A stretch of DNA of 64,000 bases. Source: Deinococcales bacterium (GTDB lineage Bacteria; Deinococcota; Deinococci; Deinococcales; JAAFIG01). A program made the translations under genes and the position numbers. Below the pieces are notes generated by a model that saw only the letters and a program-made list of their open reading frames with translations, ran no database searches and was not told the origin of the DNA. The stretch lies in the NCBI GenBank assembly GCA_013298595.1, contig JAAFIG010000004.1, forward strand, positions 62,001-126,000, given 5' to 3'. This document shows, piece after piece, positions 1,189-64,000 of the stretch (the stretch's first letter is position 1; every line of letters starts with the position of its first letter).

Positions 1189-1194
1189 GCTTTT

Positions 1195-2535: not shown

Positions 2536-2563
2536 ACTTGCCTCCAAAATCTGACACAATAAC

Positions 2564-2592
2564 TTGACACAGTGCGGCTGAGTTCGTACACT
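2564..2592 (+). promoter_or_regulatory. Strong sigma-70 type promoter for rpoD
   Basis: A perfect -35 TTGACA (2564-2569) is separated by 17 bp from a -10 TACACT (2587-2592). It points towards rpoD, whose start codon is at 2739, so the transcript would carry a leader of about 140 nt. Confidence 0.7.
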
Positions 2593-2597
2593 TTACC

Positions 2598-2658
2598 TTC
2601 CTTCGAGGTATTGAAGGAAGCAACCCAATTAAGTCACGGCTCGGATGCTGCATTCCGA
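2598..2658 (+). other. Two small hairpins in the rpoD leader
   Basis: The leader holds two inverted repeats. TTCCTTC and GAAGGAA flank an 8-nt loop near 2598-2620, and CTCGGA and TCCGAG flank the bases around 2640-2658. Neither is followed by a T-run, so they are not obvious terminators. They could shape translation or stability of the sigma factor mRNA, but there is no direct evidence. Confidence 0.3.
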
Positions 2659-2738
2659 GTCGAATTTTCCGTGCGGAACTTTTTTGGGCTTAGCAACGTA
2701 TAAGAAAGGTACTCGACAAACTCGAGTCAGGGGGATCA

Positions 2739-4628
2739 ATGGCAAAGGCACCAGTCAGCAAAGCAAAAACGCCAGTCAAACCAGCCGCGAAAGCCGCTCC
2801 CAAAACCACTGGGGGCAAAAACGCCGCGAAACCAAGCGCCAAAGCAGCGCCTAAACCTGCCGCCAAAAAACCTGTTGCCCAGAGTAAACCTGCAACAAAA
2901 CCCAGCCCTAAACCAGCGTTAAAAACATCATCCTCGAGCAGTAAAGTCAGTGCAAAACCCGCACCAACCAAAACTGCCCCTAAGAAAGTGACGAAAACAA
3001 CAACACCCATGAGTAAACCTGCTGCTAAACCAGCTGCAAAACCAGCTGCAAAAACACCAACCGCTCCTCCAACAAAACCCACGACTAAACTAGTCTCTCG
3101 AGCAGCCACAACCAGCAAATCCGCACCTGCTGCCAGCAAAAGCAACTCAAGCAAAACCTCAGTTGCTGCAAAAGCTACCCCAACAAAAACAGTTGCACCA
3201 GCTGCCAAACCCGTTACACCTAAACCCGCTCCTGTTGCAGCAAAAACTGTTGCACCTAGCAAAACACCTGCCAGTCCTGCGGTTAAAGCACCTGCGAGCA
3301 AACCAACTGGGAAAGCTGCCACACCACCAAGTAAAGTGGCAGGTAAACCAGTTGCCGAAGCAAAACCCACAGAAACCAAAGCTACTGGCAAGAAACGGGC
3401 TTGGGTTGATACTGATGCCATCCGCGATTTAGTTAAACGCGGCAAAAAAGAAGGCATGCTCAACAGTGCCGAAGCCGCTGATGCACTCGGTAAAGCCTTG
3501 CGTGAACTCGGCTTAAACCCCGACGAAACTGATGAATTTGATGATTTGATGCAGTACCTGCAATCCGAAGGTGTTTTCATCGAAGACCTAGCCGATGACG
3601 AAGAACTCGAGATGGACGACGAAATCGGCTTGGACGGCGCGTTTGACGAAGAAGGCGAAAAAGAAGAAGACCTCGAGTCTCGGGTAGCTGAGGAAACAGG
3701 TCGTCTTTCCACCAACGACCCAGTGAGGCAGTACCTACACGAAATTGGACGCGTTGCCCTTTTAACTCTCGAGGAAGAAATTGATCTTGCTCGCCGTGTC
3801 GAAGAAGGCGAAGAAGCCAAAAAGTCTTACGCTGAACTGCCCGATGATGCCGAAGAACGCGCTCGCCGTACCCTCAAACGGCGCGGACAAGACGGCGATG
3901 CCGCCCGTCAACACTTAATTGAAGCTAATTTACGCTTAGTGGTATCAATTGCTAAAAAATACACGGGACGCGGCATGAGCTTCTTAGACTTAATCCAAGA
4001 AGGCAACCAAGGCTTAATCCGTGCCGTCGAAAAATTCGAGTACAAACGCCGATACAAATTCAGTACCTATGCCACATGGTGGATTCGTCAAGCCATCAAC
4101 CGCGCCATTGCCGACCAAGCCCGCACCATCCGCATCCCTGTGCACATGGTCGAAACCATCAACAAACTCACCCGCACTGCCCGCCAACTGCAACAAGAAC
4201 TCTCTCGAGAACCCAGCTTTGAAGAGATCGCTGAGCAAATGGGACCAGGATGGAACGCCGAAAAAGTCGAAGAAGTGCTCAAAGTCTCCCAAGAACCAGT
4301 CTCCCTCGAGACCCCAATTGGTGACGAAAAAGACAGCTTCTATGGCGATTTTATTCCCGATGATAACCTCGACACGCCAGTAGACAACGCTGCCAAGAGC
4401 CTATTATCTGAAGAACTCGAGAAAGCCCTTGCTAAACTCACTGAACGCGAAGCGATGGTCTTAAAACTCCGCAAAGGCTTAATCGACGGACGCGAACACA
4501 CCCTCGAGGAAGTTGGACAGTACTTTAATGTCACAAGGGAACGCATCAGGCAAATCGAAAACAAAGCCCTACGAAAACTCAAATACCACGAAAGCCGCAC
4601 CCGCAAACTGCGCGACTTTCTGGATTAG
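2739..4628 (+). CDS. rpoD: Primary RNA polymerase sigma factor with long basic N-terminal extension
   Basis: Housekeeping sigma factor, directing core RNA polymerase to -35/-10 promoters. AGGGGG upstream supports the start. Residues 1 to about 220 are low complexity, built from Lys, Ala, Pro, Thr and Ser and resembling a histone H1 tail. They are followed by a short folded segment, an acidic stretch (about 265-315), and the conserved core: [12 protein letters not shown] (about 326, region 1.2), [19 protein letters not shown] (about 393, region 2.1-2.2), [14 protein letters not shown] (region 2.4), and the region 4 helix-turn-helix [20 protein letters not shown] (about 588). The core matches Deinococcus RpoD closely. 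The gene has its own promoter and a strong terminator just after the stop. Confidence 0.97.
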
Positions 4629-4634
4629 AAAGAC

Positions 4635-5981
4635 TCAAGGCGCTGCTACGGCAGCGCTTTTTTCTTGCTCTCGAGCCGCTTTTTGCTGCCGCAAAAGCCA
4701 GTTATCGTAACGGAAATTTTCTTTAAACAAATTAGGAGAATTCATATCACCCATGATCTCGAGTGGCAAGCCATCCACTTCGATCCAAGCATGCCCCTCG
4801 AGCACACCACCTACTTTACGCACACCACTGACAAAACTGGCTGCAAAACCATCTCGAGAAAGTACTCGTAATAAAACCAATGATTTTGGTACACAAGGAT
4901 TTTTTTGCAAACGCAGCAAACGACTAGCCAATTTAACTCCGACACACCATTTAATGAGTTTGCCGAATGTCGGTCGCTCATGAGATTGGGTATCAAAACC
5001 AGCCACCAAAAGATTCAAATCCGCAGACTCATCTCGAGCTTTTATTGCCTTGAGTAACAAGCCAATGCTCTGCCACAGATATGCGATTCTCGAGGGTGCA
5101 TTCTTGATGCGATCAAAATAATAATCAAATTCGTAAGAACCTAATTCAGAAGCACACTGAAAATCCCATTGAAGCTGCTGCAAACGTGAAGGTGGTTGTA
5201 AATCAAGTATATGCAACCACGGATCGCAAGTCTCAAGCGTGATAGCAATATTTTTCACACAACCCAATTCCTTAGCTCGAGCTAAAACAGCATCTCGAGT
5301 GATAACACTTTGTTCTTTCAAAGCCAATAAATCTGTGTAATCCGAAGCCTTACGCTTCCACCGATCACCCCAACGACGATTAATCAAAAAAGCAATCACA
5401 TGATCTACAGGTTGTGGAATCCACATTGGCTCACCCAGTAATTCAACTTTGACTGCACTTTCAGCGATAGCTGCTGTAAAACGCTGACGCTTTCTCGAGA
5501 AAGCATCTGTTTGCAATAACTCGAGATGAATATCAATTCGCACAGTTCGGTCTGGTGTGAACAAATGACTAAACTCATGGTCATAACCAAGAGCATCATC
5601 GTCCATACGACAACTCTCCAGCCAACCAGTATCTCGACCTAAATCCACAGCTGTTTTGGCTTCTTCAAGACTAAAAAGAACATCAATATCGCCATAAGAA
5701 CGCTCAAATGAATTCACATAAACAAATTCAGATAAAGCAAAACCCTTAAAAATCATTGGACGTAAACCAGCTTTGTTCCAGATTTTCAGGAGTCCAACAA
5801 AATGTTGGCGTACCAAACTTTGCTGTGCAGCTCGAGCTAGGATAGTAGGACGTAAAGATTTACGTGTTGGATGTTCAACCTCTAATTGTGAATACACCCA
5901 TCCCTCGAGTTTCAAAGCCTGAACTTCATTCAGCAAAGGCACGTCAACACGTTGACCAAGCAAAAATTCAACCACACTCAT
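4635..5981 (-). CDS. Nucleotidyltransferase (NTP_transf_5) fused to a lasso-B2-like transglutaminase domain
   Basis: A two-domain protein of 448 residues. The N-terminal two thirds looks like the uncharacterised NTP_transf_5 family: FKGFALSEFV followed by SYGDIDVLF, the G-D-x-D metal motif of nucleotidyltransferases, then DIHLEL. The C-terminal part resembles Transglut_core3, the cysteine-protease-like fold of lasso peptide B2 proteins: NPCVPKSLVLLRVL (Cys363), EGHAWIEVDG (His397) and an acidic residue at 403 or 412. It overlaps the upstream capD-like gene by ATGA, so it is translated with the polysaccharide operon and is its last gene. No asparagine-synthetase partner or lasso precursor is visible nearby, so a lasso peptide role is not supported. 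Modification of a peptide or sugar at the cell surface is possible. The terminator of rpoD lies inside its 3' end. Confidence 0.7.
   Translation of the reverse strand: MSVVEFLLGQRVDVPLLNEVQALKLEGWVYSQLEVEHPTRKSLRPTILARAAQQSLVRQHFVGLLKIWNKAGLRPMIFKGFALSEFVYVNSFERSYGDIDVLFSLEEAKTAVDLGRDTGWLESCRMDDDALGYDHEFSHLFTPDRTVRIDIHLELLQTDAFSRKRQRFTAAIAESAVKVELLGEPMWIPQPVDHVIAFLINRRWGDRWKRKASDYTDLLALKEQSVITRDAVLARAKELGCVKNIAITLETCDPWLHILDLQPPSRLQQLQWDFQCASELGSYEFDYYFDRIKNAPSRIAYLWQSIGLLLKAIKARDESADLNLLVAGFDTQSHERPTFGKLIKWCVGVKLASRLLRLQKNPCVPKSLVLLRVLSRDGFAASFVSGVRKVGGVLEGHAWIEVDGLPLEIMGDMNSPNLFKENFRYDNWLLRQQKAAREQEKSAAVAAP
4640..4663 (+). terminator. Rho-independent terminator of rpoD
   Basis: GCGCTGC (4640-4646), loop TACG, GCAGCGC (4651-4657), then TTTTTT. 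It lies directly behind the rpoD stop codon and overlaps the 3' end of the convergent gene at 4635-5981. Confidence 0.85.
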
Positions 5982-7828
5982 GAGGCAATGAAATCCCGAA
6001 ACGTTGGAATTAAACGCTTAAATTCAGCCCGAACAGCTCCTGCATCCCCTCGAGCTGCGGCTTCTTTCAAAACGGCTAATTGTGCTTCAAAATTTGCTGG
6101 TGGTGCGGATTCTTTTGCGACAAAAATCTTTGTATGCTTAGAAGCCGATGTACCTTCTTCAGCAGTTAACAATTCCTCAAATAATTTCTCACCAGGTCGC
6201 ACACCACTAAAGACAATTTCGATGTCCCTACCAACTTCAAAACCAGACAAACGAATCACATCTTTAGCAAGGTCAACAATCTTCACAGGTTCACCCATAT
6301 CAAGTACATATACGGCACCATTATCAGCCAGCCCACCAGCCTGTAAAACCAATTGTGATGCTTCTGGAATAGTCATAAAGTACCGAGTCATGTCTGGGTG
6401 AGTAATTGTCACTGGACCACCCGCTTTAATTTGTTCTTGAAACAATGGAATCACGCTTCCTCGAGAACCAAGCACATTGCCAAATCGTACTGAAACAAAG
6501 TCTTGATTTGGCTTGGCTCGAGCTGCGCCACGTTGCACCAAAAATTCTGCTACACGTTTAGAAGCACCCATTACTGAAGTTGGATTAACAGCCTTATCTG
6601 TGGACACATTGACAAGTCGTTGTACGTCAAACTCGAGACATAAATCCACGATATTGGACGAACCTTGAATGTTATTAGCCACTGCCTCCCAAGGGTTTTC
6701 TTCCATTAAAGGCACATGTTTATGGGCTGCAGCATGAAAAACGACTTGTGGTTTGAACCGCTCAAACGCTCGACGTAACGTACTCACATCTCGCACATCA
6801 GCAATCACAGCATGGGTCTCGAGTTCAGGATATGTTCTCCGCATTTCTTGCTGAATCAGATAAACACTATTCTCGCCTCGCCCAAGCAAAATCACTTTTG
6901 CAGGGGCAAACCGCGCTACTTGACGCACAATTTCTGATCCAATACTGCCACCTGCACCTGTCACTAACACAGTGCGATTCTCAAGATACCCAGCAATTTC
7001 AGCCGTCTCAAGCTTCACCGAATCGCGGCGGAGTAAATCCTCGAGTGATACTGAACGAATCTGTGAAATGCCAACTTTACCCGACAGAATTTCAAAAACA
7101 CCAGGAATAATTCGGTACGGAATACCAGCTTCTCGAGCCAAATCCACAACGCGGCGCACAACCCGACCAGAAGCGCTTGGAATCGCAATCAACACTTCGG
7201 TCGCACCAGTTTCCAGCACAACTCGAGGAAGAGCATCCACTACACCCAGAAGTGGCAAACCAACAAAACTCTGACCAGCCTTAGCGCGTTCATCATCCAA
7301 AAAACCAATGGGTTGCAAACCAGATGCAGGATGACGAATCATCTCCCTTGCAATAATTGTTCCAGCTTCACCAGCACCGACAATCAAAACCCGTTTACCA
7401 CGCCCAGCTTCGAGACCAGCAAGACTAACCGCTTGGCGTTCAAACAAGACTCGAGCCAGCAAACGCAGCCCGCCCAGTGCCAGCGCCGCCAATACGCCTT
7501 CAATCAGTGGAACGCTTCGTGGCACAAGAGTCCAGCCAGAAAGTACAAAATTAAGTAAATAAACAGGAACCGTCCACAGCGCCAAGACTGCACCTAAACG
7601 GTACAAATCACGCACACCAACCTTATGCCAAGACTGCCGATGCAGCCCAAAGAAATACAGTAATCCAGCCTTTGGAATCACACCAAAAGCCACATACCAA
7701 ACAATCACGCGCTTATGCTCGAGAAGTGGCAAATCAATTCGGACAAAAAAAGCCAGCAGACCAACAAAAGACCAAGCCAATAAATCCAGTACAAATTTTT
7801 CTTGAGTTGGACGAGACAGACGCGACAT
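5978..7828 (-). CDS. Membrane-bound CapD/WbpM-type nucleotide-sugar 4,6-dehydratase
   Basis: Likely converts a UDP-HexNAc (commonly UDP-GlcNAc) to the 4-keto-6-deoxy sugar, the first step to many deoxy-amino sugars. About 616 residues. Several hydrophobic helices occupy residues 1 to about 120, then a Rossmann segment (VLIVGAGEAGTIIAREM), then a second SDR domain with VTGAGGSIGSEIVRQ around 290. The family signature NPTSVMGASKR carries Met in place of the usual SDR Tyr. MTRYFMTIPEA and RPGEKLFEELL complete the family pattern. It lies in the minus-strand polysaccharide operon between the polymerase-like gene and the fused nucleotidyltransferase, which it overlaps by 4 nt. The exact substrate cannot be read from sequence. 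Confidence 0.9.
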   Translation of the reverse strand: MSRLSRPTQEKFVLDLLAWSFVGLLAFFVRIDLPLLEHKRVIVWYVAFGVIPKAGLLYFFGLHRQSWHKVGVRDLYRLGAVLALWTVPVYLLNFVLSGWTLVPRSVPLIEGVLAALALGGLRLLARVLFERQAVSLAGLEAGRGKRVLIVGAGEAGTIIAREMIRHPASGLQPIGFLDDERAKAGQSFVGLPLLGVVDALPRVVLETGATEVLIAIPSASGRVVRRVVDLAREAGIPYRIIPGVFEILSGKVGISQIRSVSLEDLLRRDSVKLETAEIAGYLENRTVLVTGAGGSIGSEIVRQVARFAPAKVILLGRGENSVYLIQQEMRRTYPELETHAVIADVRDVSTLRRAFERFKPQVVFHAAAHKHVPLMEENPWEAVANNIQGSSNIVDLCLEFDVQRLVNVSTDKAVNPTSVMGASKRVAEFLVQRGAARAKPNQDFVSVRFGNVLGSRGSVIPLFQEQIKAGGPVTITHPDMTRYFMTIPEASQLVLQAGGLADNGAVYVLDMGEPVKIVDLAKDVIRLSGFEVGRDIEIVFSGVRPGEKLFEELLTAEEGTSASKHTKIFVAKESAPPANFEAQLAVLKEAAARGDAGAVRAEFKRLIPTFRDFIAS

Positions 7829-7849
7829 AAGAAAATTGTACCACCAACC

Positions 7850-9376
7850 TCAAGAAATCACAGAAGGTAGGGTAGAATCTGAAATCGTCTTTTCGGATTT
7901 CTTAAATCCTGCAGCTGCCATCCAGAAGGCTAGGTGTACAGGTGCATAGAAAAATAAGTAATCCACAGAATTAATCACAAAAATTGCCGCCAACAAAGCC
8001 AGTGCACCCGCATCTCGAGCGCGCCATGCACGTAATACCACCCAAAGCCACAACCATAACATAGCACATAAACCAACTAAACCACTTTCAACAGCCATGT
8101 TTAACCATAAGTTATGTGCATGCGTCAAAGATTCCTTAACTACCCCGAATCTTGATGCTCGAGTATCAAGATTAATTTGTAAAGCAGAAACTAAATCCCC
8201 ACCCGTACCAATTAGAAAAGTGCGTGGATTCTCGAGCCAAACTTTAATCGCTAAACGCCAAATCTCGATGCGACTTCGAGCAGAGTCATTGTCCACTACG
8301 TTCAGTGCGCGTACACTATATGGGGTTTGTGCAAAAGTTTGGGCTTGGTTTTTTGGCATCGTTACTACTTGTCCTATAAAAATTCCAAGCAGACCAAGTA
8401 CAAAAAGCCATGGCATAAGTCTATATAAACGGGAACGCATAATTAAAAGTACAGCAAGTCCAATAATAAAAGCAATGAATGCCGCTCGTGATCCAGAAAG
8501 AAATATGCAGAGCAGCGCGGGAACAAACGGAACTATAAACCATAGATAACTAGAGGCTAAAACGACTGCGATCAATCCAATCATGACCACTTGTGAACCA
8601 AATGCATTCTCATTAAAAGAAAACCCTTTGGCTCGAGAAAAAGTATCTAGCCGCTCCTGCCAAGATGGTGGCACTAAAGCAGTAAGTCGCATATTTCTAA
8701 TTTCAATATCTGCATCCCCAGTTTTCCATGTCCCAGCACCACCAAATCCAAATGCGCTAATCGCACGTTCGGGAAGTTCTACTTCCAATTGGCAAAACGT
8801 CCAATCCGACTTAATTGAACAACGTTTTTCGATTTTTTTACTCTCTTTACCCCAATAAGAAAACCATATATTGACATCTTGAGGCTTGTCCATCCTCATC
8901 TCTACTTGATAGCTCACTACTCCTGAGCCTTGATAGTCCAATAATTGTAAAGCCCAAGCATCGCTTTTATCTACAGCTGTAAATCGTTTATAGTTATCTA
9001 TATAAGCTAGTTTTGTCACTGTTGGGGTGAGTTGCCAAATAGGTTCTATCAGAAAACCAAATGTTTTGGAGGCAAAAAGTAAAGCCAAACAGCTTAAACC
9101 GAAAAAAAGTCCAAAAAACAATCCTCTTTTCTCCGAAAAACCCTTCAATGCATTGAGCCAAAAAAAAGCATAAATAGGAAAAAGTATAACAGACCAATTG
9201 GCTGTTCTTACAGTTAAAATAACCCAAAAAAAAATAAACAAGACTGCCAAGTGCAAAGGTGGTTTAAATGTTAGTTTATTTTTTAAAAAATAGAAAATAC
9301 CTAATCCAAGCAGTAATACACTTATTATTTCAGGTGAAAAAGTATATATAAAACCAACGATTAGAATCAGAATCAC
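7850..9376 (-). CDS. O-antigen ligase/polymerase-like membrane protein with an embedded soluble domain
   Basis: A 508-residue multi-span membrane protein. The C-terminal half carries the Wzy_C/O-antigen ligase pattern: a loop with GTGGDLVSALQINLD and THAHNLWLNMAVESGLVGL, followed by helices. Residues about 148-228, between the early helices, form a soluble insert with alternating hydrophobic strands and two Cys (KRCSIKSDWTFCQLEVEL), ending DIEIRNMRL. This resembles a carbohydrate-binding jelly roll. The start is GTG overlapping the TGA of the sugar transferase gene (GTGA), which implies coupling. Its job is probably chain polymerisation or transfer of the finished glycan to an acceptor. A second Wzy-like gene is at 16569, so a ligase role is likely for one of them. 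Confidence 0.75.
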   Translation of the reverse strand: MILILIVGFIYTFSPEIISVLLLGLGIFYFLKNKLTFKPPLHLAVLFIFFWVILTVRTANWSVILFPIYAFFWLNALKGFSEKRGLFFGLFFGLSCLALLFASKTFGFLIEPIWQLTPTVTKLAYIDNYKRFTAVDKSDAWALQLLDYQGSGVVSYQVEMRMDKPQDVNIWFSYWGKESKKIEKRCSIKSDWTFCQLEVELPERAISAFGFGGAGTWKTGDADIEIRNMRLTALVPPSWQERLDTFSRAKGFSFNENAFGSQVVMIGLIAVVLASSYLWFIVPFVPALLCIFLSGSRAAFIAFIIGLAVLLIMRSRLYRLMPWLFVLGLLGIFIGQVVTMPKNQAQTFAQTPYSVRALNVVDNDSARSRIEIWRLAIKVWLENPRTFLIGTGGDLVSALQINLDTRASRFGVVKESLTHAHNLWLNMAVESGLVGLCAMLWLWLWVVLRAWRARDAGALALLAAIFVINSVDYLFFYAPVHLAFWMAAAGFKKSEKTISDSTLPSVIS

Positions 9377-52848: not shown

Positions 52849-53676
52849 TTAGTGTTTTCCGAGAACATCTGTTAGTAAATGCACCAATTTGTCGCGCAAC
52901 GCAATAAATTCTACAGAACGGGTTAGTTCAGCTCGAGGGCGCGGACGAGCAAATGGCACATTGATGATTTCTTGGATTCTGGCTTTTGGACCATTACTCA
53001 TCACAACAATGCGGTCTGAAAGATACAGCGCTTCGTCGATATCGTGTGTGACCATGACAACGGTTTCGATACCGCTTTCACCAGTCCACATTTCATTGAG
53101 TTTGTCTTGCAAAGACCCTCTTGTCAGTGCATCCAAAGCACCAAATGGTTCATCTAATAACAATACTTTGGGGTGCGTAGCAAAGGCTCGAGCAATAGCA
53201 ACTCGTTGTTTCATACCGCCCGAAAGTTCACTTGGGCGTTTTTCACGGTGCGACCACAAATTAACAGCCCGCAAAAACACTTCGACTCGAGCTTTGATTT
53301 CGATAGCATTTAAACTTGGGCGAGCTGCCTCGAGTGCCTCAGAAACATTTTGATAAACATTCAGCCACGGTAATAACGAGTAATTCTGGAAAACCACTGC
53401 CCGATCTGGACTAGGTTTTTGAATTTCTAAACCATCAAGTTTAAGACTGCCTGTACTTGGCGACTCGAGACCTGCAATTAAGGAAAGTAATGTACTTTTA
53501 CCGCAACCAGAATGCCCAATTAAACTAACAAACTCGCCCGCTTTAATCTCGAGATTGACATGTTCAATCGCTGTATAAGAACCAAATGATTTTGAAACCC
53601 CGCTGATCTCGAGTCCTGTAGCGCGTTGCAAATGTGAGGCGCTCAGAACAGCACTGGTAGAAATATCGCTGTACAT
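52849..53676 (-). CDS. nrtD: Nitrate/nitrite ABC transporter ATP-binding protein
   Basis: 275 residues. Walker A is GHSGCGKST, the Q-loop is VVFQNYSLLPWLNVYQNV, the ABC signature is LSGGMKQRVAIARAFATHP, Walker B is VLLLDEPFGALDA, and the H-loop His is in VMVTHDIDEAL. This is the NrtD/SsuB/TauB class. Nitrate specificity comes from its operon: nirA, nitrate reductase, nrtA and nrtB all lie upstream in the same direction. No nrtC (the ATPase fused to a sensor domain) is present, so this subunit probably forms a homodimer. Confidence 0.9.
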   Translation of the reverse strand: MYSDISTSAVLSASHLQRATGLEISGVSKSFGSYTAIEHVNLEIKAGEFVSLIGHSGCGKSTLLSLIAGLESPSTGSLKLDGLEIQKPSPDRAVVFQNYSLLPWLNVYQNVSEALEAARPSLNAIEIKARVEVFLRAVNLWSHREKRPSELSGGMKQRVAIARAFATHPKVLLLDEPFGALDALTRGSLQDKLNEMWTGESGIETVVMVTHDIDEALYLSDRIVVMSNGPKARIQEIINVPFARPRPRAELTRSVEFIALRDKLVHLLTDVLGKH

Positions 53677-53765: not shown

Positions 53766-54593
53766 TTAAACCGTATAGGTGACTTTTTTCTGTGCCCATT
53801 CAAAAACTTTATCGAGCAACAAACCTGTAATACCAATGATGAAAATAGCGCTGATGACTTTTTCATAACTGAGCGCGTTATACGAATCCCAAACGAAGAA
53901 ACCGATACCACTGGCACCTGAAAGCATTTCTGCTGCCACAATTACCATCCAAGCAACACCAAAAGACAAACGTAAACCCGTTAAAATATGTGGCAGAGCA
54001 AAAGGAATCAGCACTTGGCGCACATAACGATCTGGGGTGAAACTAAAAACTCGAGCCACATTTTTATAATCTTTTGGTACACTGGCAACACCAAAAGCAG
54101 TGTTTAAGACTGTTGACCACAAACTGGTAATGAAAATCACAAACACCAAAGCATTCGGGGTGACTTTAAGTGTTACCAAAGCAATTGGGTACCAAGCAAG
54201 CGGAGAAACAGGGCGCAGCACTTGCACAATTGGGTTCATTAAACGCTGCACAAATGGCACACTACCCATAAGCATACCCAGCGGAATTGCCACTAAACCA
54301 CCCAGCAACCAACCTAAGGAGACTCGAGTTAAACTTGCCCAAAGTAAACGCCCAATACCTTGGTCATTTGGTCCACCATAACGAAAAGGGTCTTTGATTA
54401 ATTCCCAAAAAACAACAGCCGTGGCTTGAGGTGTTGGTAAATCAGCGCCAACAAAAGCTCGAATCACTGACCATAATGCCCAAATTAAACCAATGCTTAA
54501 CGCACCAATGCCAAGGCTCGAGACAACAGCAGGGATTTTGAAAGGTTTAATCGGTTTTAACTCCAGTGGTGTGGTTGAAATTTTCTCTGTCAT
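53766..54593 (-). CDS. nrtB: Nitrate ABC transporter permease
   Basis: The start at 54593 (MTEKISTTPLELKPIKPF) is chosen because GGAG lies a few bases upstream; the extension to 54620 is rejected. 275 residues with about six membrane helices. The cytoplasmic EAA-type loop appears around GVASVPKDYKNVARVFSFTP, followed by QVLIPFALPHILTGLRLSFGVAWMVIVAAEML, as in NrtB/SsuC permeases. It works with NrtA and NrtD in the inner membrane. Confidence 0.92.
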   Translation of the reverse strand: MTEKISTTPLELKPIKPFKIPAVVSSLGIGALSIGLIWALWSVIRAFVGADLPTPQATAVVFWELIKDPFRYGGPNDQGIGRLLWASLTRVSLGWLLGGLVAIPLGMLMGSVPFVQRLMNPIVQVLRPVSPLAWYPIALVTLKVTPNALVFVIFITSLWSTVLNTAFGVASVPKDYKNVARVFSFTPDRYVRQVLIPFALPHILTGLRLSFGVAWMVIVAAEMLSGASGIGFFVWDSYNALSYEKVISAIFIIGITGLLLDKVFEWAQKKVTYTV

Positions 54594-54776: not shown

Positions 54777-55994
54777 TCAAACGTTTTTAAGATAAGCAGC
54801 TGGGTTGTTTGGATCGAATTTCAGATTATCCAAGGTCAGGCTGAACGGTTTCATATCATCGGTTGGTATGGCAATACCCATTTCCTTTGCCACAGATTCG
54901 TACAGATCCTGCATGATTAATTTATTGGCAACAGCTTTGTAATCTGGAGCCGTTTTTAAATAACCAAATCGTTGGTACTGCGCCATAAACCAAATAGCGT
55001 GCGATAAACGTGGGTACGGGGTTTTACCGCCACGGAAGAACTGCATTCTGTCCTCGAGAAATTGCTTAGTACCAATACCAGCACCCATATCATAACGACC
55101 CTCGAGTCTGCCACTAATCACATCTGGGCTGGCATTGACATATTGGGCTTGTCCGATGGTAGCTGCTGCTTTACGGATATTACCGATATTATCTAACCAC
55201 TCACCAGCCTCGAGAATGGCTTTCATCAGTTTTTTCACAGTTTCGTCTTGTTCAGCAAAATCTTTATTCAAAACCAAAGCTTTTTCTGGGTGGTGTTTCC
55301 AAATTTCTTGGCTCGTAATGGTTGTAAAACCAACATCTTGGGCAACGCCAACACCATTCCACGGCTCACCAACGCAGTAACCCAGCATATTACCAACTTT
55401 CATATTGGCAACCATTTGTGGCGGTGGAATAGTAATAATGCGTTGTTTACTCGAGACACTAGCATCCACACCTGCGGTAGCCAAGTAATTACGCAGCCAT
55501 ATATCGTGTGTACCACCTGGGAAAGTCATAGCAAAAGTCGTGTCTTTACCATCAGCTGCGAGTTTCTCGAGAGCTGGTTTAAGTTTTTTAATGTCGCGTC
55601 CAACGCTGCTTAATGCTTTACCCAAAGTGATTGCTTGACCATTATTATTAAGAATCATAGCAATTTTCATTTCCTTACCTGCTTGCCCACCAATGCCGTT
55701 ATAGACACTAAAAGGCATACCAAATAAGCAATGAGCACCTTGAATATCCCCATTTAAGATACCGTCTCGAAGGGCTGCCCACGAAGCTTGTTTCACAATT
55801 TCGACATCTAAGCCGTACTTTTTGAAATACCCCAATTCTTTTGCCATCACTAAACTGGCACAATCGGTTAACGCAATAAAGCCAAGACGAATGGTTTTTT
55901 GAGCACTGGCTCGAGAAAAAATCTGTGGTACTGCCAAAGCTGCACTGGCAGTAGCAGCGGTTTTGATGAATTGCCGACGATTGATATTGGACAT
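54777..55994 (-). CDS. nrtA: Nitrate-binding protein of the ABC transporter
   Basis: 405 residues. The N-terminus SNINRRQFIKTAATASAALAV has twin arginines and a hydrophobic stretch, a Tat-type signal. The mature part has the NrtA/SsuA fold: LGFIALTDCASLVMAKELGYFKKYGLDVEIVKQASW, then GDIQGAHCLFGMPF, LGYCVGEPWNGVGVAQDVGF, and a late LSHAIWFMAQYQRFGYL. It captures nitrate or nitrite outside the membrane and delivers it to NrtB. Both NrtA and the NarK-like domain upstream bring the same substrate. Confidence 0.92.
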   Translation of the reverse strand: MSNINRRQFIKTAATASAALAVPQIFSRASAQKTIRLGFIALTDCASLVMAKELGYFKKYGLDVEIVKQASWAALRDGILNGDIQGAHCLFGMPFSVYNGIGGQAGKEMKIAMILNNNGQAITLGKALSSVGRDIKKLKPALEKLAADGKDTTFAMTFPGGTHDIWLRNYLATAGVDASVSSKQRIITIPPPQMVANMKVGNMLGYCVGEPWNGVGVAQDVGFTTITSQEIWKHHPEKALVLNKDFAEQDETVKKLMKAILEAGEWLDNIGNIRKAAATIGQAQYVNASPDVISGRLEGRYDMGAGIGTKQFLEDRMQFFRGGKTPYPRLSHAIWFMAQYQRFGYLKTAPDYKAVANKLIMQDLYESVAKEMGIAIPTDDMKPFSLTLDNLKFDPNNPAAYLKNV

Positions 55995-56040: not shown

Positions 56041-59000
56041 TTAATCAGCTGCAATAGCATTACTCGAGGTTCGGGCTGGAATTTGAATAATATGTTCGCC
56101 GCTGGTACGAATTAACTCGAGTTCGGTTTTTAAGCGCTCAATTTCAAGGCGAAGCACAGCAATGTAGAAGATGGCAAAACTAATCAGGGTCAGTATCGTT
56201 AGGACAATAAAAATAATTTGTGGATAAGCTTTGCCAAGCGCAGCAAATAACAGTGGTAAAGCAAAACCACCAAGCCCACCAAGTAAGCCCACTAAGCCGC
56301 CAACCACACCAATATCTTTGGCATACCAGTGTGTCACCAGTTTGTAATTACTGGCTTTACCAACGCCCATACCAATACCAACAACAACGGTGATGCAGGT
56401 AAAAATTGGCAAACTGATAATACTTGCAGGTAATGCTAACAAAGCCAGTGCACTCATCATGACAATAAACGAAACAAGTGTGACAGGACGTGCTCCAAAT
56501 TTATCTGAGAGAAAGCCACCCAGTGGACGCAATAAACTAGCTGGAAAAATAAACAAAGCTGTCAGTAAACCTGCAACACTCAGTGGTAAATCGTAAACAT
56601 CCTCGTAATACTTAGGTAACCATAGTGAAAGCGCCACATAAGCACCAAAGAAAATCACGTAATACAAACCAAAACGCCAAACCTGAATTTTTGTTAACGG
56701 ACGCAACCACTCGAGCATGGTTTTACGGGTGGTTGTAGCTTTATCTTTTGGCGCGTAGAACTGCACAAACAAAGCGACCAGCACTAAGGCAATACCAAAC
56801 ATAAATGGCACAAACCGCCATCCATAAAAATACAGACCACTCGAGGCAGGTATCAGACCTATCATGCCTGGAGCCAGAAGTTTTGTGATACTAGCACCCA
56901 CATTGCCAGCGCCAAATGTTCCGAGTGCCAAACCACTTTTTTCTTTTGCTACCCACGCACCAATCCAAGCGTTACCAATAGCAAAACTCACACCAGCAAA
57001 GCCAATAAAAAAGGCTAAGGTCAGAATACTCGAGTAAGTGGTTAGCGTTGGTAAAATAAAGGCTGTACCAGCGGTAAACAGCATCAACGTCACAAACATG
57101 TTGCGTCCGCCAAAACGTTCTGCCATGATACCCGCAGGTAAACGCAAAAGCGACCCTGTGAGAATCGGTACAGCTGTTAAAAGTGCAAATTGCGAATCGG
57201 TTAAACCCATTTCTTTACGCAATGCCAAACCAACAATTGAAAACATCACCCAAACAGCAAACATCAAGGTAAAACCCATTGTGGCAGCAGTAATTACTCG
57301 AGCTTCGGGGGCTTGTGAAAATACAAAAGGACTGGCTTTGGCTCTGGTACGACGGGCTTCTCGAGTGGCAGCTCCTGAAAGTAAAGCGCTATAACCAAGT
57401 GGCAAGTTATTTGGAGCAAAAAATGGTTGATTGACAGGTGTTTCTAAGACATCCGAAATTCGCTCGAGTTGAGCGGGTGTGACCTTAAAATCGGGCATGC
57501 GGCTAGTTGGGTCTAAGGTGGCTTTGGTTAAACGATTGGCATTGGCTAAACCAGCATAATGAAAAGTGCTAAACACTGTGTCTTCACGGATTGAATCTTG
57601 AATCAGCACTGCAAAATCTGCACTACCCGATTCGGTGGTGACGCGCACTTTTTCGCCTTTTAAAACACCATATTGTTTTGCTAGGTTTGGGTGCATCTCG
57701 AGGACTGCATGTGGTGCTTTAGCATTGAGTTTTTCGTTGCGCCGTGTTTGCACACCACTTTGGTACTGATGGGCATTCCGACCCGTAGTGAAGTACACAG
57801 GTCGCTCGAAACTGGCAATCTCGGCGGGTAATCTATAAGCAATTGGCTCGAGATGTGCTTTGCCATCGGCATGAGCAAAACGTACAGCAAAAGGCTCAGG
57901 TATACCTGCATGCCCAAGATCTGGGCATGGGTAAAAAACACCATTTGGTTCAAGTTTTTCGTAGGTGATGCCCGAGTAATCAGCACTCGAGCCTTTAGTA
58001 GCTGCTGCTAATTCTGTGAAAATTTCACGTGGACTACTAAAAGCAAATTTATCACCAACACCAAGCAACTCGGCAATCTGACACAGAATCTGCCAATCGG
58101 CTCGAGCTTCGCCAGGTAAATTCGTGGCTTGGCGACGACGCAAAACTCGTCCCTCGAGATTGGTCATGGTGCCATCTTCTTCAAGCCACATGCTGCCAGG
58201 CAAAACCACATCTGCCAGTTGTGCTGTTTCGGAAAGGAAAAAATCGATGACCACCAAATGCTCGAGGCTACCAAGATGACGGGTTACAGCTAAGCTATTG
58301 GCTGCGCTGACCACAGGGTTAGAACCAAGTACCAGCAAACCCTGAATTTTACGACCACATGCCTCGAGTAATTCCTGAGCGCTCAGCCCTTTACGTGGTA
58401 ATTCTGATTCAGCAATTCCCCAAAAATCGGACATAAAAGTGCGAGCTGCTGGGTCTTCAATCAAACGATAACCTGGTAGTTGATCGGCTTTTTGTCCGTG
58501 TTCACGCCCACCCTGACCATTTCCTTGACCAGTTAAAGGCGCATAAAAACCACCCATTGCCAAGGCTAAATTGAGCAAAGCTTTAATTGTTTCAACACCT
58601 CGAGAAGATTGTTCAGGACCGCGCCCAGATAAAATAAGTAAAGTGCCTTTTTGAGCGCTAGTGCCCATGACTTTGGCTGTTTCACGAATGACCATTGCAT
58701 CCACACCACAACGCGCAGCTGCCCATGCTGGCGTGCAATAACGCACACTCTGCGCCACAGCTGCCCAACCAGAAACTCGAGCTTCGAGAAAGGCAATATC
58801 TAAAAGGTTTTCGGAAATCAGTGCATTGAGTAAACCAAGTGCCAAAGCCAAATCGCCATTTGGTTGCACAGGAATATGCAAAGTTCCAAGTTTGGTACTT
58901 GGTGTGGCACGCGGGTCAACCACAATAATTGGTGCACCATTCTTGCGTGCTCTTGCGACAAATTGCGAAACAGGTGGCAAAGTTTCTGCTAAATTACTGC

Positions 59001-59532
59001 CCCATAAAACAATACAACTTGCCTCGGCGACTTTCTCGAGTGGAAATGGCAAACCCCGATCCATACCGTAAACGGCTCGCATGGCAGCTCCAGCGCTGCT
59101 CATACAGTAACGCCCGTTGTAATCGATATTGGCTGTTTTTAAAGCAACTCGAGCAAATTTACCCAGTAAATATGTTTTCTCATTGGTTAAACTGCCACCA
59201 CCAAACACAGCGAAGGCATTGCGACCATATTCGGATTGAACACGTTTGATGTTACTTGAAACTCGAGCCAATGCCTCTTGCCAAGTGGCAGGTACAAGCT
59301 CACCATTCTGACGCACCAAAGGGGTCAAGAGCCGTTCTGCGTGGCTTGGCTCCTCGAGGGCAGCTAAACCTTTTTTGCAGACACTGCCATGCGCCACAGG
59401 GCAAGCAGGCGTGCTGCGCAATGCCAGTAATTCATTGCCTTTGTGTTCGATTTCAAAAGTACACTGCACTGCGCAATATGGGCAGGTGGTTTTTGTCACC
59501 TGAGCTGTTGGCTCGAGAAATGACATGGTCAT
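56041..59532 (-). CDS. Assimilatory nitrate reductase fused to NarK-type nitrate/nitrite transporter
   Basis: One uninterrupted reading frame of 1163 residues with two complete proteins. Residues 1 to about 720 are a molybdopterin nitrate reductase of the NasA/NarB kind: the [4Fe-4S] cysteines 17, 20, 24 and 52 (TCPYCAVQC, SVCKKG), GRYCMSSAGAAMR, TGQGNGQGGREHGQKADQLPGYR, DFFLSETAQLADVVLPGSMWLEEDGTMTNLEGRV and YFTTGRNAHQYQSG. Residues about 745 to 1140 form a 12-helix MFS domain with FGAGNVGASITKLLAP and GFLSDKFGARPV, as in NarK/NasA transporters. No FAD or [2Fe-2S] domain is present, so reduction probably uses ferredoxin. The reductase is cytoplasmic and would be tethered to its own uptake channel. 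It lies 30 bp after nirA. Confidence 0.9.
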   Translation of the reverse strand: MTMSFLEPTAQVTKTTCPYCAVQCTFEIEHKGNELLALRSTPACPVAHGSVCKKGLAALEEPSHAERLLTPLVRQNGELVPATWQEALARVSSNIKRVQSEYGRNAFAVFGGGSLTNEKTYLLGKFARVALKTANIDYNGRYCMSSAGAAMRAVYGMDRGLPFPLEKVAEASCIVLWGSNLAETLPPVSQFVARARKNGAPIIVVDPRATPSTKLGTLHIPVQPNGDLALALGLLNALISENLLDIAFLEARVSGWAAVAQSVRYCTPAWAAARCGVDAMVIRETAKVMGTSAQKGTLLILSGRGPEQSSRGVETIKALLNLALAMGGFYAPLTGQGNGQGGREHGQKADQLPGYRLIEDPAARTFMSDFWGIAESELPRKGLSAQELLEACGRKIQGLLVLGSNPVVSAANSLAVTRHLGSLEHLVVIDFFLSETAQLADVVLPGSMWLEEDGTMTNLEGRVLRRRQATNLPGEARADWQILCQIAELLGVGDKFAFSSPREIFTELAAATKGSSADYSGITYEKLEPNGVFYPCPDLGHAGIPEPFAVRFAHADGKAHLEPIAYRLPAEIASFERPVYFTTGRNAHQYQSGVQTRRNEKLNAKAPHAVLEMHPNLAKQYGVLKGEKVRVTTESGSADFAVLIQDSIREDTVFSTFHYAGLANANRLTKATLDPTSRMPDFKVTPAQLERISDVLETPVNQPFFAPNNLPLGYSALLSGAATREARRTRAKASPFVFSQAPEARVITAATMGFTLMFAVWVMFSIVGLALRKEMGLTDSQFALLTAVPILTGSLLRLPAGIMAERFGGRNMFVTLMLFTAGTAFILPTLTTYSSILTLAFFIGFAGVSFAIGNAWIGAWVAKEKSGLALGTFGAGNVGASITKLLAPGMIGLIPASSGLYFYGWRFVPFMFGIALVLVALFVQFYAPKDKATTTRKTMLEWLRPLTKIQVWRFGLYYVIFFGAYVALSLWLPKYYEDVYDLPLSVAGLLTALFIFPASLLRPLGGFLSDKFGARPVTLVSFIVMMSALALLALPASIISLPIFTCITVVVGIGMGVGKASNYKLVTHWYAKDIGVVGGLVGLLGGLGGFALPLLFAALGKAYPQIIFIVLTILTLISFAIFYIAVLRLEIERLKTELELIRTSGEHIIQIPARTSSNAIAAD

Positions 59533-59562: not shown

Positions 59563-61092
59563 TTAATCATCAGCTGCCTCAAGTTCTCGAACCAGTAAAT
59601 GCGGCAAGTGCTCACGGGTTAATTGCACTAATTTTTCAGGCAATTCAGTAATTGGTACACGATCAAGAATTTTATGAGCGAGTTGAGCGTTTCGCCCAAT
59701 CATGCCACCAACGTACACATCCACGGCTTCAACCATGACGCCATCTTTTTTAACTTTTGTGCCTTGCAAACCAAAATCACCGATATGATGACTAGCACAA
59801 GCATGTTGGCAACCGCTCCAATGAATCCGAATTGGCTCGATTAAAGGCAAAGCATTCAGCAATTCTGTCTCGAGAATCTGGCTGACCTCGAGGGCACGGG
59901 TTTTGGTTTCAATCACTGCCATTGGACAGAATTCCACACCTGTGCAACTGACCACACCTTCAACAATTTTATTGGGGGTGGCTGTATGCCGCATAAAAAA
60001 CGGATGAGCTAAAACAGTTTCCAAATCAGCTGTTTTAATATTTGGTAAGATTAAATTTTGTTCGATTGTAAAACGTGCTTCGCCTGTGCCATACATATCT
60101 GCTAAGTTCGCTAACTCGAGCAATGCCGTACCTGTAGTGCGTCCAACAGGTACATGAACACCAATGTAATGCAGTCCCAGTTGCTTTTGTGGATTGACAC
60201 CAAGGTGCAAACGCGGTGTGCCCTGAATCCGTAAATCCTCACCTGCCGTCTCGAGACGATAACCAAGGTGTGTCTCGAGTGCGGCACGGAATTTTTCGAT
60301 ACCCCATAACTCGAGTAACCATTTCAGACGGGCTTTATGGCGTTCTTCGCGCAGTCCATGTTGATGGTACAACTCGACGATACCTGCTGTGATTTTTAGC
60401 GCTTGTTCAGGCAAAATCCAAACATCGAGTTCTCGAGCTAACATCGGATGTTTACCACCCACCGCTCCACCAATCATGACGTTAAAACCAAGCATGCCAT
60501 TTTTCCGAGCGGGGTACATACCAATGTCGTTGGTACTGGCACCAAGATCATGGATATGCCCAGTGATATGAATATTCATTTTGCGTGGCAAATTAGCGGT
60601 TGCTGGGTTGCCTTGATCAAAATTGGTAATCCAATCAGAAATTTCACGACAAATTGGTAAGGCATCAATCAGTTCGCCTGAATCGAGTTGAGCCACACTC
60701 GAGGTCACAACATTACGGATACTATCCATGCCGTTTTGCAGACTGGTTAAATGCACAGCCCGCAAGCGTTCATAAACTTCTGGAATATGGCTAGTATCAA
60801 GCCAACGCAATTGCACTTGCTGGCGCGTTGTAATGTCGACTAAATCGTGTCCAAAATCTTTGGCAATACCCGCAATCACTCGTAACTGGGCACTCGAGGC
60901 GACCCCACCAGCCACACGAATACGCTGCATCAGGGTTGGTGGTTCGGTTTCTCTGTACCAAAAACCCAGCCATTTAATACGTTGCTGATCATCTTTGGAA
61001 AGCTCTGCCACAGGGGTACTGGCTAAGCGTGGGAACTCGTTGAGTAGCTCGAGTCCGAGTTTTTCTTGTTTTAAGCGTTCAATTGGATTCAT
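59563..61092 (-). CDS. nirA: Ferredoxin-nitrite reductase (siroheme)
   Basis: Reduces nitrite to ammonium with six electrons. 509 residues from the ATG at 61092 (AAGGGG about 10 nt upstream); a GTG at 61104 is possible. TTRQQVQLRWL and the two half-domains of the sulfite/nitrite reductase fold are present. The siroheme/[4Fe-4S] ligands lie in VVSCTGVEFCPMAVIETK and IRIHWSGCQHACASHHIGDFG (C-x5-C then C-x3-C). It is the first gene of the nitrate operon, divergent from hemD. Confidence 0.92.
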   Translation of the reverse strand: MNPIERLKQEKLGLELLNEFPRLASTPVAELSKDDQQRIKWLGFWYRETEPPTLMQRIRVAGGVASSAQLRVIAGIAKDFGHDLVDITTRQQVQLRWLDTSHIPEVYERLRAVHLTSLQNGMDSIRNVVTSSVAQLDSGELIDALPICREISDWITNFDQGNPATANLPRKMNIHITGHIHDLGASTNDIGMYPARKNGMLGFNVMIGGAVGGKHPMLARELDVWILPEQALKITAGIVELYHQHGLREERHKARLKWLLELWGIEKFRAALETHLGYRLETAGEDLRIQGTPRLHLGVNPQKQLGLHYIGVHVPVGRTTGTALLELANLADMYGTGEARFTIEQNLILPNIKTADLETVLAHPFFMRHTATPNKIVEGVVSCTGVEFCPMAVIETKTRALEVSQILETELLNALPLIEPIRIHWSGCQHACASHHIGDFGLQGTKVKKDGVMVEAVDVYVGGMIGRNAQLAHKILDRVPITELPEKLVQLTREHLPHLLVRELEAADD

Positions 61093-61118
61093 TGCGGTTA
61101 ACACCCCTTACTCGAGGC

Positions 61119-61376: not shown

Positions 61377-62177
61377 ATGAAAACCAAACCCGATTTCGCT
61401 GGCGTGAATGTACTCTCCCTCGAGTCTCGGCGGGCAGAAGAAATGCAGTCTTTGATTCGCGGTTATAACGGCATTGGCACAGTTGCACCAAGCCTACGAG
61501 AAGTACCGCTTGAAACCAACACACGATTACTCGAGTTTGCTGCCGAGTTACGCATTGGTCAGGTACAACATTTGGTTTGTATGACAGGGGTTGGCACCAA
61601 GTTTTTACTGCAACAACTAAAAAATATTCCTGAAACCATCGCCGCACTGCAAAACACAACCATTGTCATTCGCAGTAACAAAGCCACAAGTGTTCTACGG
61701 GAACATGGTTTAAGCGCTACCTTGGTTAATGATCCGCACACATGGCACGAAATACAAAGTCATTATCAAAACACAGACCTACAAAATCAAACCATTTGGA
61801 TTGCCGAATTTGGCGAAGACACCCCATCCGAGCTGATCTCAAATCTGCAAGCCAAAGGCGCAAAAGTACAAACCTTAGCCCTGTACCGCTGGGCATTACC
61901 CGAAAACACCAAACCACTCGAGGATGCCATTCGTGGTGTTTGCAACAATGAATTTCAGTGGTTATTGCTAACCAGTGGTGTACAACTCTGGCATGCCATC
62001 ACTTTTGCCAAAACACTTGGTCTCGAGACTGATTTTCGCGCAGCCTTGCAAAAAATTCGTATTGCCAGCATTGGACCAAGTTGCAACGAAGCGATTCTCG
62101 AATTGGGGTTTACACCAAGTATTGTGGCAGAACCACATAAGATGGGAACACTGGTCAGAGCCGCCGCTTTGGCATAA
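61377..62177 (+). CDS. hemD: Uroporphyrinogen-III synthase
   Basis: Closes and isomerises hydroxymethylbilane to uroporphyrinogen III, the branch point to siroheme and heme. 266 residues, two-lobed HemD fold: LSLESRRAEEMQSLIRGYNG at the start, VCMTGVGTKFLLQQL, then VVIRSNKAT-like IVIRSNKATSVLREHG, LALYRW, and FQWLLLTSGVQLWHAITFA with IRIASIGPSCNEAILELGF. HemD proteins are poorly conserved, but this pattern is typical. It is divergent from nirA, whose product needs siroheme. Confidence 0.85.
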   Translation: MKTKPDFAGVNVLSLESRRAEEMQSLIRGYNGIGTVAPSLREVPLETNTRLLEFAAELRIGQVQHLVCMTGVGTKFLLQQLKNIPETIAALQNTTIVIRSNKATSVLREHGLSATLVNDPHTWHEIQSHYQNTDLQNQTIWIAEFGEDTPSELISNLQAKGAKVQTLALYRWALPENTKPLEDAIRGVCNNEFQWLLLTSGVQLWHAITFAKTLGLETDFRAALQKIRIASIGPSCNEAILELGFTPSIVAEPHKMGTLVRAAALA

Positions 62178-62592: not shown

Positions 62593-62650
62593 GCTTTGTC
62601 GCGTGTTCGGAAGCGGTATCCAACCACACGGCAGGTCAAAGGAGATTGAC

Positions 62651-64000
62651 ATGAGTAAGATGACCTCGGGTTGGCTGAATGTGATGGGGCTGTTGATTGT
62701 CGGCAGTGCGCTCTCATTGGCAGGCTGCGAAGCGCAAACACCAATATCCACGCCAACGCCAGTGCCTGACGTGCAAAGCTTCACAAGACAAGATGTAAAA
62801 AGCGTGGATTTTAGTTCTGGGGCAAATTATTTTTCCATCAAGGCGGCTTCTTCAGGCTCGGGGGGTGAAGTTGAGTTACGCCTTGATCGTGCCAATGGTC
62901 CAGTGATCGGTCGCGCTTATTTTCACCATACAGGCAGTCAAACGTATTTCTTGGACTACGAAGCAAAACTCAATCAAGTCGTCACTGGACAACACGATGT
63001 CTATATGAATTTTCAGGACTATTCTGCACCAACGGCTGGTGGAATTCTAAAGATAGGTGACTTTAAGTTTTTAATGACCAATACGAATTCGGCGACTGGT
63101 TCTTCAGGAAACACAGGAGACGCTAGCTTGCATGTTTATGATCCTGTGCCAGAACTAGATCCATCACCGTACTATGAAATCCGTGTTCAGGAAAAAAGCA
63201 AGCTCAACTCGGCTAGCCTCAGTGCGGTCACAAATTGGCAAACCCCTTTCGCGTGGTTCACCGAATGTGTACAAAAAAGCGCACCTGACACCTTTACCGA
63301 TAAGTCATATTACGGTTCTATTGCTGGATGGAGTCACACATTCACCAATTTTGAATTGACTTCTGGCACAACCATTGTTGTAAAAATATCCCGCAAAGCA
63401 ACGAATGACTTTAATGCCCCAGCAGGTCCAATCAGCACCGCTGTTGCATATCCAAAACGCCATGTTTTGTCTACAGAAGTGATTAATGGCGACGTGTACG
63501 TGACCATGAACAAACCAGCCCAAGTGAGCATTGATATTGACGGGCAAATGGATACGCGCAATGCGCCAAGGGTGAAACCAGATGGTTTTCTTTCTGCCGG
63601 TGCGTTTCCATTCGCTGGTCGTAAAGAAGGTTCACATGCCGTTTCAATTTTTGCCAATCCATTCATCACTCCACCCAACAAAAACGATCCAGGCGTGTTG
63701 GTGATTAAGGCTGGGCAAAAGATACCAGCCGATTTGAGCACACGCTCTTGGAGTACCCTTTATTTCGAGCCTGGTGTTCACAAAACTTCGGTGGACGAGG
63801 TTACAGATAAAGACGGCAACAAGAACCTCGTCGAACGGCTATGGAAACCTGAGGATCGGATACCATTGATCAGCGGTCGGAGTTACTACATCCCTGGGGA
63901 TGCCATCGTTTACGGAAATTTCAGCGATTACGACAAAACATCTTCCAACGTGAAAATCTACGGGCATGGTCTCATCTCTGGTTCAAAAATTCTTCACTTT
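62651..64000 (+). CDS. Secreted CBM6-like/beta-helix glycosidase, N-terminal part
   Basis: The frame is open from ATG 62651 (AGGAGA upstream) to the window edge, 450 codons, so the gene is incomplete. The signal is LLIVGSALSLAGC, a lipobox, followed by a Thr-Pro linker. Residues about 50-170 resemble a CBM6 domain: VELRLDRANGPVIGRAYF and TGQHDVYMNF. From about 190 a beta-sandwich with SWSTLYFEPGVHKTS, RSYYIPGDAIVYGNFSD and NVKIYGHGLISGS suggests the start of a right-handed beta-helix, as in GH49 dextranases and related enzymes. It is nearly free of CTCGAG, unlike its neighbours, so recent acquisition is likely. It probably degrades or modifies a polysaccharide outside the cell. Confidence 0.7.
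   Translation, partial: MSKMTSGWLNVMGLLIVGSALSLAGCEAQTPISTPTPVPDVQSFTRQDVKSVDFSSGANYFSIKAASSGSGGEVELRLDRANGPVIGRAYFHHTGSQTYFLDYEAKLNQVVTGQHDVYMNFQDYSAPTAGGILKIGDFKFLMTNTNSATGSSGNTGDASLHVYDPVPELDPSPYYEIRVQEKSKLNSASLSAVTNWQTPFAWFTECVQKSAPDTFTDKSYYGSIAGWSHTFTNFELTSGTTIVVKISRKATNDFNAPAGPISTAVAYPKRHVLSTEVINGDVYVTMNKPAQVSIDIDGQMDTRNAPRVKPDGFLSAGAFPFAGRKEGSHAVSIFANPFITPPNKNDPGVLVIKAGQKIPADLSTRSWSTLYFEPGVHKTSVDEVTDKDGNKNLVERLWKPEDRIPLISGRSYYIPGDAIVYGNFSDYDKTSSNVKIYGHGLISGSKILHF

What the first reader, a model, noticed from the sequence alone, without database searches (positions are those of the whole stretch)
56041..59532. Nitrate reductase and NarK-type transporter fused in one protein
One open frame encodes a full molybdopterin nitrate reductase (residues 1 to about 720) followed by a full 12-helix nitrate/nitrite transporter (about 745-1140). 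This would fix the reductase to the inner face of its own transporter, passing nitrate directly to the active site and limiting nitrite leakage. The operon also encodes an ABC nitrate importer, so uptake is doubled. The two modules are usually separate genes.
Basis: partly seen in the sequence, partly recalled or inferred. Interest (0 to 1): 0.78.

Follow-up and report, generated by a model that had tools for sequence, protein, structure and literature searches.

The report
Nitrate reductase fused to nitrate transporter
In one uncultured relative of Deinococcus, the enzyme that reduces nitrate and the transporter that brings nitrate in are encoded as one intact protein; all relatives searched keep them as separate genes or lack the transporter, so this is a genuine but lineage-restricted merger of two operon genes.

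Summary
Window 56041-59532 (-) is one uninterrupted 1163-codon frame: an assimilatory nitrate reductase (NasA/NarB type, residues 1 to ~695), a ~47-residue linker, and a complete NarK1-type nitrate transporter (~743-1140). It is not one lost stop codon: nasA's stop and narK's own start and ribosome-binding site are both missing. Flanking genes are the operon neighbours found in relatives. Both halves keep their key residues: all 71 columns invariant in 25 other NasA-type enzymes, and 85 of 91 invariant in 38 separate NarKs.

Within reach the fusion is unique. In 111 Deinococcota genomes only this one has it; the congener and the nearest other genus have nasA followed directly by nrtA and no comparable narK. 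Deinococcus plasmids carry nasA and narK as adjacent separate genes. No fused gene turned up in 72,556 plasmids. No paper describing such a fusion was found in the library held.

Most likely it is a tethered assimilatory unit: a proton-coupled nitrate importer with the reductase held on its cytoplasmic face at 1:1. Direct channelling and reduced nitrite leakage are untested. Doubled uptake (ABC plus NarK) is not special; D. gobiensis and a Byssovorax MAG have both as separate genes.

The parts
56041..59532 (-). Fused gene nasA-narK, 1163 aa
   Evidence: Single open frame; ribosome-binding site upstream of its ATG (-6.8 kcal/mol)
57448..59532 (-). NasA/NarB-type assimilatory nitrate reductase part (residues 1-695); 4Fe-4S cysteines C17, C20, C24, C52; Mo-ligand-type C143
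   Evidence: Pfam and NCBIfam hits; 71 of 71 invariant residues kept; tree with G001 and G003
57307..57447 (-). Linker, residues 696-742, no start codon with a ribosome-binding site
   Evidence: Alignment of nasA ends and narK starts in relatives; start-site scan
57372..57376 (-). AGGAG, Shine-Dalgarno-like, with no start codon at a usual distance after it; possible remnant of the lost narK start
   Evidence: interpretation is speculative
56113..57306 (-). NarK1-type MFS nitrate transporter part (residues 743-1140); substrate arginines R797 and R1002
   Evidence: tree
59563..61104 (-). nirA, ferredoxin-type nitrite reductase, upstream in the operon
   Evidence: NCBIfam PRK09566 510 bits (cut-off 594, so below it); Pfam NIR_SIR
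54777..55994 (-). nrtA, ABC nitrate-type substrate-binding protein with Tat signal
   Evidence: 88% to the G001 copy; Pfam NMT1_2 and TAT_signal
53766..54593 (-). nrtB, nitrate ABC permease (start moved to ATG 54593)
   Evidence: TIGR01183 214.6 bits over cut-off 209; ribosome-binding site
52849..53676 (-). nrtD, nitrate ABC ATPase
   Evidence: TIGR01184 311.7 bits over cut-off 291.8
61377..62177 (+). hemD-like uroporphyrinogen-III synthase, divergent; likely siroheme supply for NirA
   Evidence: Pfam HEM4; also next to nirBD in Deinococcus and G003

Best explanation
The gene is a genuine fusion of two assimilation-operon genes, nasA and narK. It arose in this species' lineage when the stop of nasA and the start of narK were lost, probably through one small deletion or rearrangement at the junction. 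It encodes one inner-membrane protein: a cytoplasmic assimilatory nitrate reductase at the N-terminus, a tether of about 50 residues, and a NarK1-type nitrate/proton symporter. Nitrate taken up by the symporter, or by the NrtABD importer of the same operon, is reduced at the membrane face, and nitrite goes on to NirA. The benefit, if any, is a fixed 1:1 ratio and co-localisation, not a sealed channel. Shown: the fused frame, conservation of both halves, operon context and restricted distribution. Inferred: that it is made as one protein, its topology, symport activity, electron donor (ferredoxin) and any kinetic benefit.
For: Single frame. No internal start in the linker or first helix has a good ribosome-binding site, while most other starts checked in and next to the operon have one of -5.9 to -8.9 kcal/mol (nirA's listed start is weaker at -2.5). 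Deinococcus relatives have a stop, then a ribosome-binding site and ATG between the genes, absent here. Invariant residues kept in both halves: NasA 71/71, NarK 85/91, against 0-5 lost in control NarKs. NasA dN 0.18 against a saturated dS in comparison with the congener. Codon usage and CTCGAG density of the narK half are like those of its neighbours, so it is long resident. NasA groups with G001 and G003 (100/100); NarK groups with assimilatory narK of Deinococcus and Byssovorax (100/99). 41-43% identity to NarK1 halves against 27% to NarK2 halves.
Against: Only one genome carries it; no second strain or reads could be checked. No expression or protein data. The NarK part has lost six columns invariant in others, slightly more than controls. 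Structure prediction was uninformative.
Confidence: 0.8

Rival explanations
1. Assembly or consensus error: in the organism nasA and narK are separate neighbouring genes and the fused frame is an artefact.
For: The genome is a draft in 68 contigs, the congener is a metagenome bin, and no other genome has the fusion.
Against: A chimera would have to be an insertion, since nrtABD follows on one side as in the nearest relatives and nirA-nasA lies on the other. One base error cannot explain the lack of both stop and start. Codon usage is uniform over the junction.
Confidence: 0.07
2. Fused but not coupled in function: a near-neutral accident in which the halves act as they would apart, or are cut in the linker after translation, with no gain from joining transport and reduction.
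For: The linker looks like a plain tether; the operon keeps an ABC importer, so NarK activity may not be critical; the fusion is confined to one lineage. In the Paracoccus NarK1-NarK2 fusion the linker acts as a simple tether (PMC5217062).
Against: Both halves stay conserved, which argues against decay of either but not against this reading as such. There is no direct evidence for or against coupling.
Confidence: 0.4
3. The narK half is translated separately from an internal start at M752 (57279) or M757 (57264), so two proteins are made.
For: ATG codons exist at the beginning of the first helix.
Against: No good ribosome-binding site (0.9 and -3.1 kcal/mol against about -6 to -9 for most genuine starts), and the first helix would be cut short.
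Confidence: 0.05

Closest known systems
Separate nasA-narK neighbours on Deinococcus plasmids (D. aquaticus, D. grandis, D. actinosclerus, D. taeanensis, D. wulumuqiensis, sp. KNUC1210)
   Same: Same two families in the same order; NarK 54-63% identical
   Different: Two genes, in most cases with a clear stop, ribosome-binding site and start between them; NirBD instead of NirA; no nrtABD beside them in these six
nasA-nrtABD operons with a separate narK (D. gobiensis plasmid P1; Byssovorax MAG)
   Same: Same set of parts: reductase, ABC importer and NarK in one operon
   Different: narK is a separate gene at the end of the operon
Paracoccus NarK1-NarK2 fused transporter
   Same: A fusion involving NarK-type nitrate transporters with a linker that acts as a tether
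   Different: Two transporters fused to each other, no reductase; serves respiration
NasA/NarB ferredoxin-type assimilatory nitrate reductases
   Same: Same catalytic domains and cofactor residues
   Different: Those are soluble and single-function (established knowledge)

Membership tests
NasA/NasC/NarB assimilatory nitrate reductase | Molybdopterin oxidoreductase domain set with N-terminal 4Fe-4S motif | tested here: met
   Three Pfam domains over cut-off; C17, C20, C24, C52 kept
NasA/NasC/NarB assimilatory nitrate reductase | NCBIfam equivalog NF047855 (NasC) cut-off 1100 bits | tested here: not met
   770 bits, but it is the best hit and the stand-alone NasAs of relatives also miss it (750, 663), so it is filed only as NasA-type
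NasA/NasC/NarB assimilatory nitrate reductase | No export signal (cytoplasmic) | tested here: met
   Only 16 residues precede the first cluster cysteine, with no Tat or Sec signal visible by eye; no signal-prediction program was run
NasA/NasC/NarB assimilatory nitrate reductase | Nitrate reductase activity | not testable with these tools
   Needs an assay
NarK/NasA-type MFS nitrate transporter | Two substrate arginines (R89 and R305 of E. coli NarK) | tested here: met
   R797 and R1002 align with them and are invariant in 38 separate NarKs
NarK/NasA-type MFS nitrate transporter | TIGR00886 cut-off 311.7 bits | tested here: not met
   197 bits; separate Deinococcota NarKs also miss it (180, 221)
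NarK/NasA-type MFS nitrate transporter | NarK1 rather than NarK2 subtype | tested here: met
   41-43% to NarK1 halves, 27% to NarK2 halves
NarK/NasA-type MFS nitrate transporter | 12 transmembrane helices | tested here: inconclusive
   Nearly full-length alignment to other NarKs; hydropathy resolves 9-10 peaks; low-confidence model with about 12 helices

The most novel reading that the evidence does not exclude
The fusion is a functional transporter-reductase that couples nitrate entry to reduction at the membrane, a previously undescribed design for nitrate assimilation in which the reductase is membrane-bound through its own importer.
Probability: 0.35. Interest if true: 0.65.

Novelty: new variant of a known kind. 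Interest (0 to 1): 0.42.

Why it matters
If made and active as one chain, it gives a natural, genetically simple test of whether tying an enzyme to its substrate's importer improves use of scarce nitrate. It also gives a ready-made fusion for engineering nitrate use. Evolutionarily it is a clean case of operon neighbours merging into one gene.

Tried and rejected
AlphaFold2 on the full protein with the four-sequence alignment allowed: mean pLDDT 39, no usable domain arrangement, so no fold search was run. The one genome-contig scan returned only the congener and a Byssovorax MAG. The genome search reaches only the window's own phylum ('of' accepts G handles only), so other phyla were covered only by the plasmid collection. 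Literature searches for nitrate reductase-transporter fusions found none. Recent insertion of narK: rejected, because codon usage and CTCGAG density are like those of the neighbouring genes. Duplication of the genome's own respiratory NarK on contig C9: rejected, different clade. Two other long MFS frames in the genome (785 and 613 aa) look like ordinary transporters with a large hydrophilic stretch before the last helix, not enzyme fusions.

Full report
What is there. The minus strand of 56041-59532 holds one open frame of 1163 codons. Pfam and NCBIfam place the three domains of a molybdopterin nitrate reductase at 11-689 and a NarK-type MFS transporter from 747. It lies in an operon read leftwards: nirA (59563-61104), the fused gene, nrtA (54777-55994), nrtB (53766-54593) and nrtD (52849-53676), with a hemD-like gene divergent at 61377-62177. 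This is a nitrate assimilation operon. The genome is a Deinococcota draft of 4.58 Mb in 68 contigs; its congener is recorded as a Deinococcales metagenome bin.

Is the fusion real? Six Deinococcus plasmids carry nasA directly followed by narK as separate genes. In five of them a stop is followed by a GGAGG- or AGGAG-type ribosome-binding site and the narK ATG; in D. grandis the annotated nasA end overlaps the likely narK start and was not used. In the window there is no stop, no start codon before the first helix apart from an unsupported TTG, and no good ribosome-binding site at any internal start. Most other starts checked in and next to the operon have sites of -5.9 to -8.9 kcal/mol; nirA's listed start is weaker at -2.5. 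A lone AGGAG at 57376 with no start codon after it may be a relic of the lost narK start; that is speculation. Loss of both signals makes a single consensus error unlikely. A chimera is unlikely because nasA and nrtABD, the genes on both sides, belong to one operon in relatives. Codon usage of the two halves is alike (mean log probability -1.06 and -1.04), and the lineage's CTCGAG motif is present in both halves at densities within the range of neighbouring genes.

Are both halves intact? Seventy-one columns are invariant in 25 other NasA-type proteins and all are kept, including the 4Fe-4S cysteines C17, C20, C24 and C52 and the molybdenum-ligand-type C143. Of 91 columns invariant in 38 separate NarKs, 85 are kept, including R797 and R1002, which align with the substrate arginines of E. 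coli NarK; control sequences lose 0-5. The transporter half is 41-43% identical to the NarK1 halves of rhizobial and Paracoccus fused transporters and only 27% to their NarK2 halves. NarK1 is supported as a nitrate/proton symporter and NarK2 as a nitrate/nitrite antiporter in Paracoccus (PMC5217062). A symporter is therefore the better prediction.

How widespread is it? Among all 111 Deinococcota genomes held, only this one has the fused frame. The congener G001 (NasA 77% identical) and G003 of the same family (61%) have nasA followed at once by nrtA, and no NarK at E <= 1e-40 in the genome. A protein search of 72,556 plasmids found 427 records with a match and six in which one place covers at least 80% of the query, all of them Deinococcus pairs of separate genes. 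Other phyla could not be searched by whole genome, so rarity outside Deinococcota is not established. In the trees the reductase half sits with G001 and G003 (100/100). The NarK half sits with assimilatory narK of Deinococcus and Byssovorax (100/99) and not with the respiratory-type NarKs, one of which lies on contig C9 of the same genome. The simplest history is an ancestral assimilation operon with narK, its loss in the sister lineages, and fusion in this one; a transfer of narK into the operon before fusion is not excluded.

How it works. With no export signal visible on the reductase and the usual cytoplasmic N-terminus of MFS proteins (established knowledge), the reductase should face the cytoplasm, tethered by about 50 residues. 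That supports co-localisation and equal numbers. It does not show channelling, and nothing tested bears on nitrite leakage. Doubled uptake is not special to this gene: D. gobiensis and a Byssovorax MAG have nasA, nrtABD and narK together as separate genes.

Verdict. Real, intact, and apparently undescribed in the papers held, but a merger of two known genes in one species. It is a new variant of a known kind, of moderate interest, that would rise if coupling were shown or more members found.

Noticed in passing
whole window; also L080-L083, L090-L092, L035, L036, L041: The palindrome CTCGAG occurs 341 times in 64 kb where base composition predicts about 11 (30-fold, 5.3 per kb). It is about 19-33-fold over-represented in stretches of all four genomes held of this family, about 5-11-fold in several other Deinococcota families, and about 1-fold in Deinococcus plasmids and 1-2-fold in Thermus. 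It resembles the HIP1 palindrome of cyanobacteria; the HIP paper PMC4390886 does not mention CTCGAG or Deinococcota. Cause unknown; it may deserve its own study.
   Followed up: partly
L035 (G000:C9) 953-8338: A second, respiratory-looking nitrate reductase locus in the same genome: NasC-like reductase, 4Fe-4S ferredoxin protein, Rieske protein, weak NarI-like membrane protein, and two separate NarK transporters.
   Followed up: partly
L028 5899-12452: A Byssovorax (Myxococcota) MAG has nasA, nrtABD and narK in one operon, with NarK 63% identical to the fused one, suggesting transfer of the operon between phyla.
   Followed up: partly
L036 13821-17798 versus window 59563-61104: The nitrite reductase type differs within the family: nirBD in G003 (divergent), nirA in the window operon.
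   Followed up: no
window 62603-64000: Large open frame with a CBM6 carbohydrate-binding domain running off the window end.
   Followed up: no
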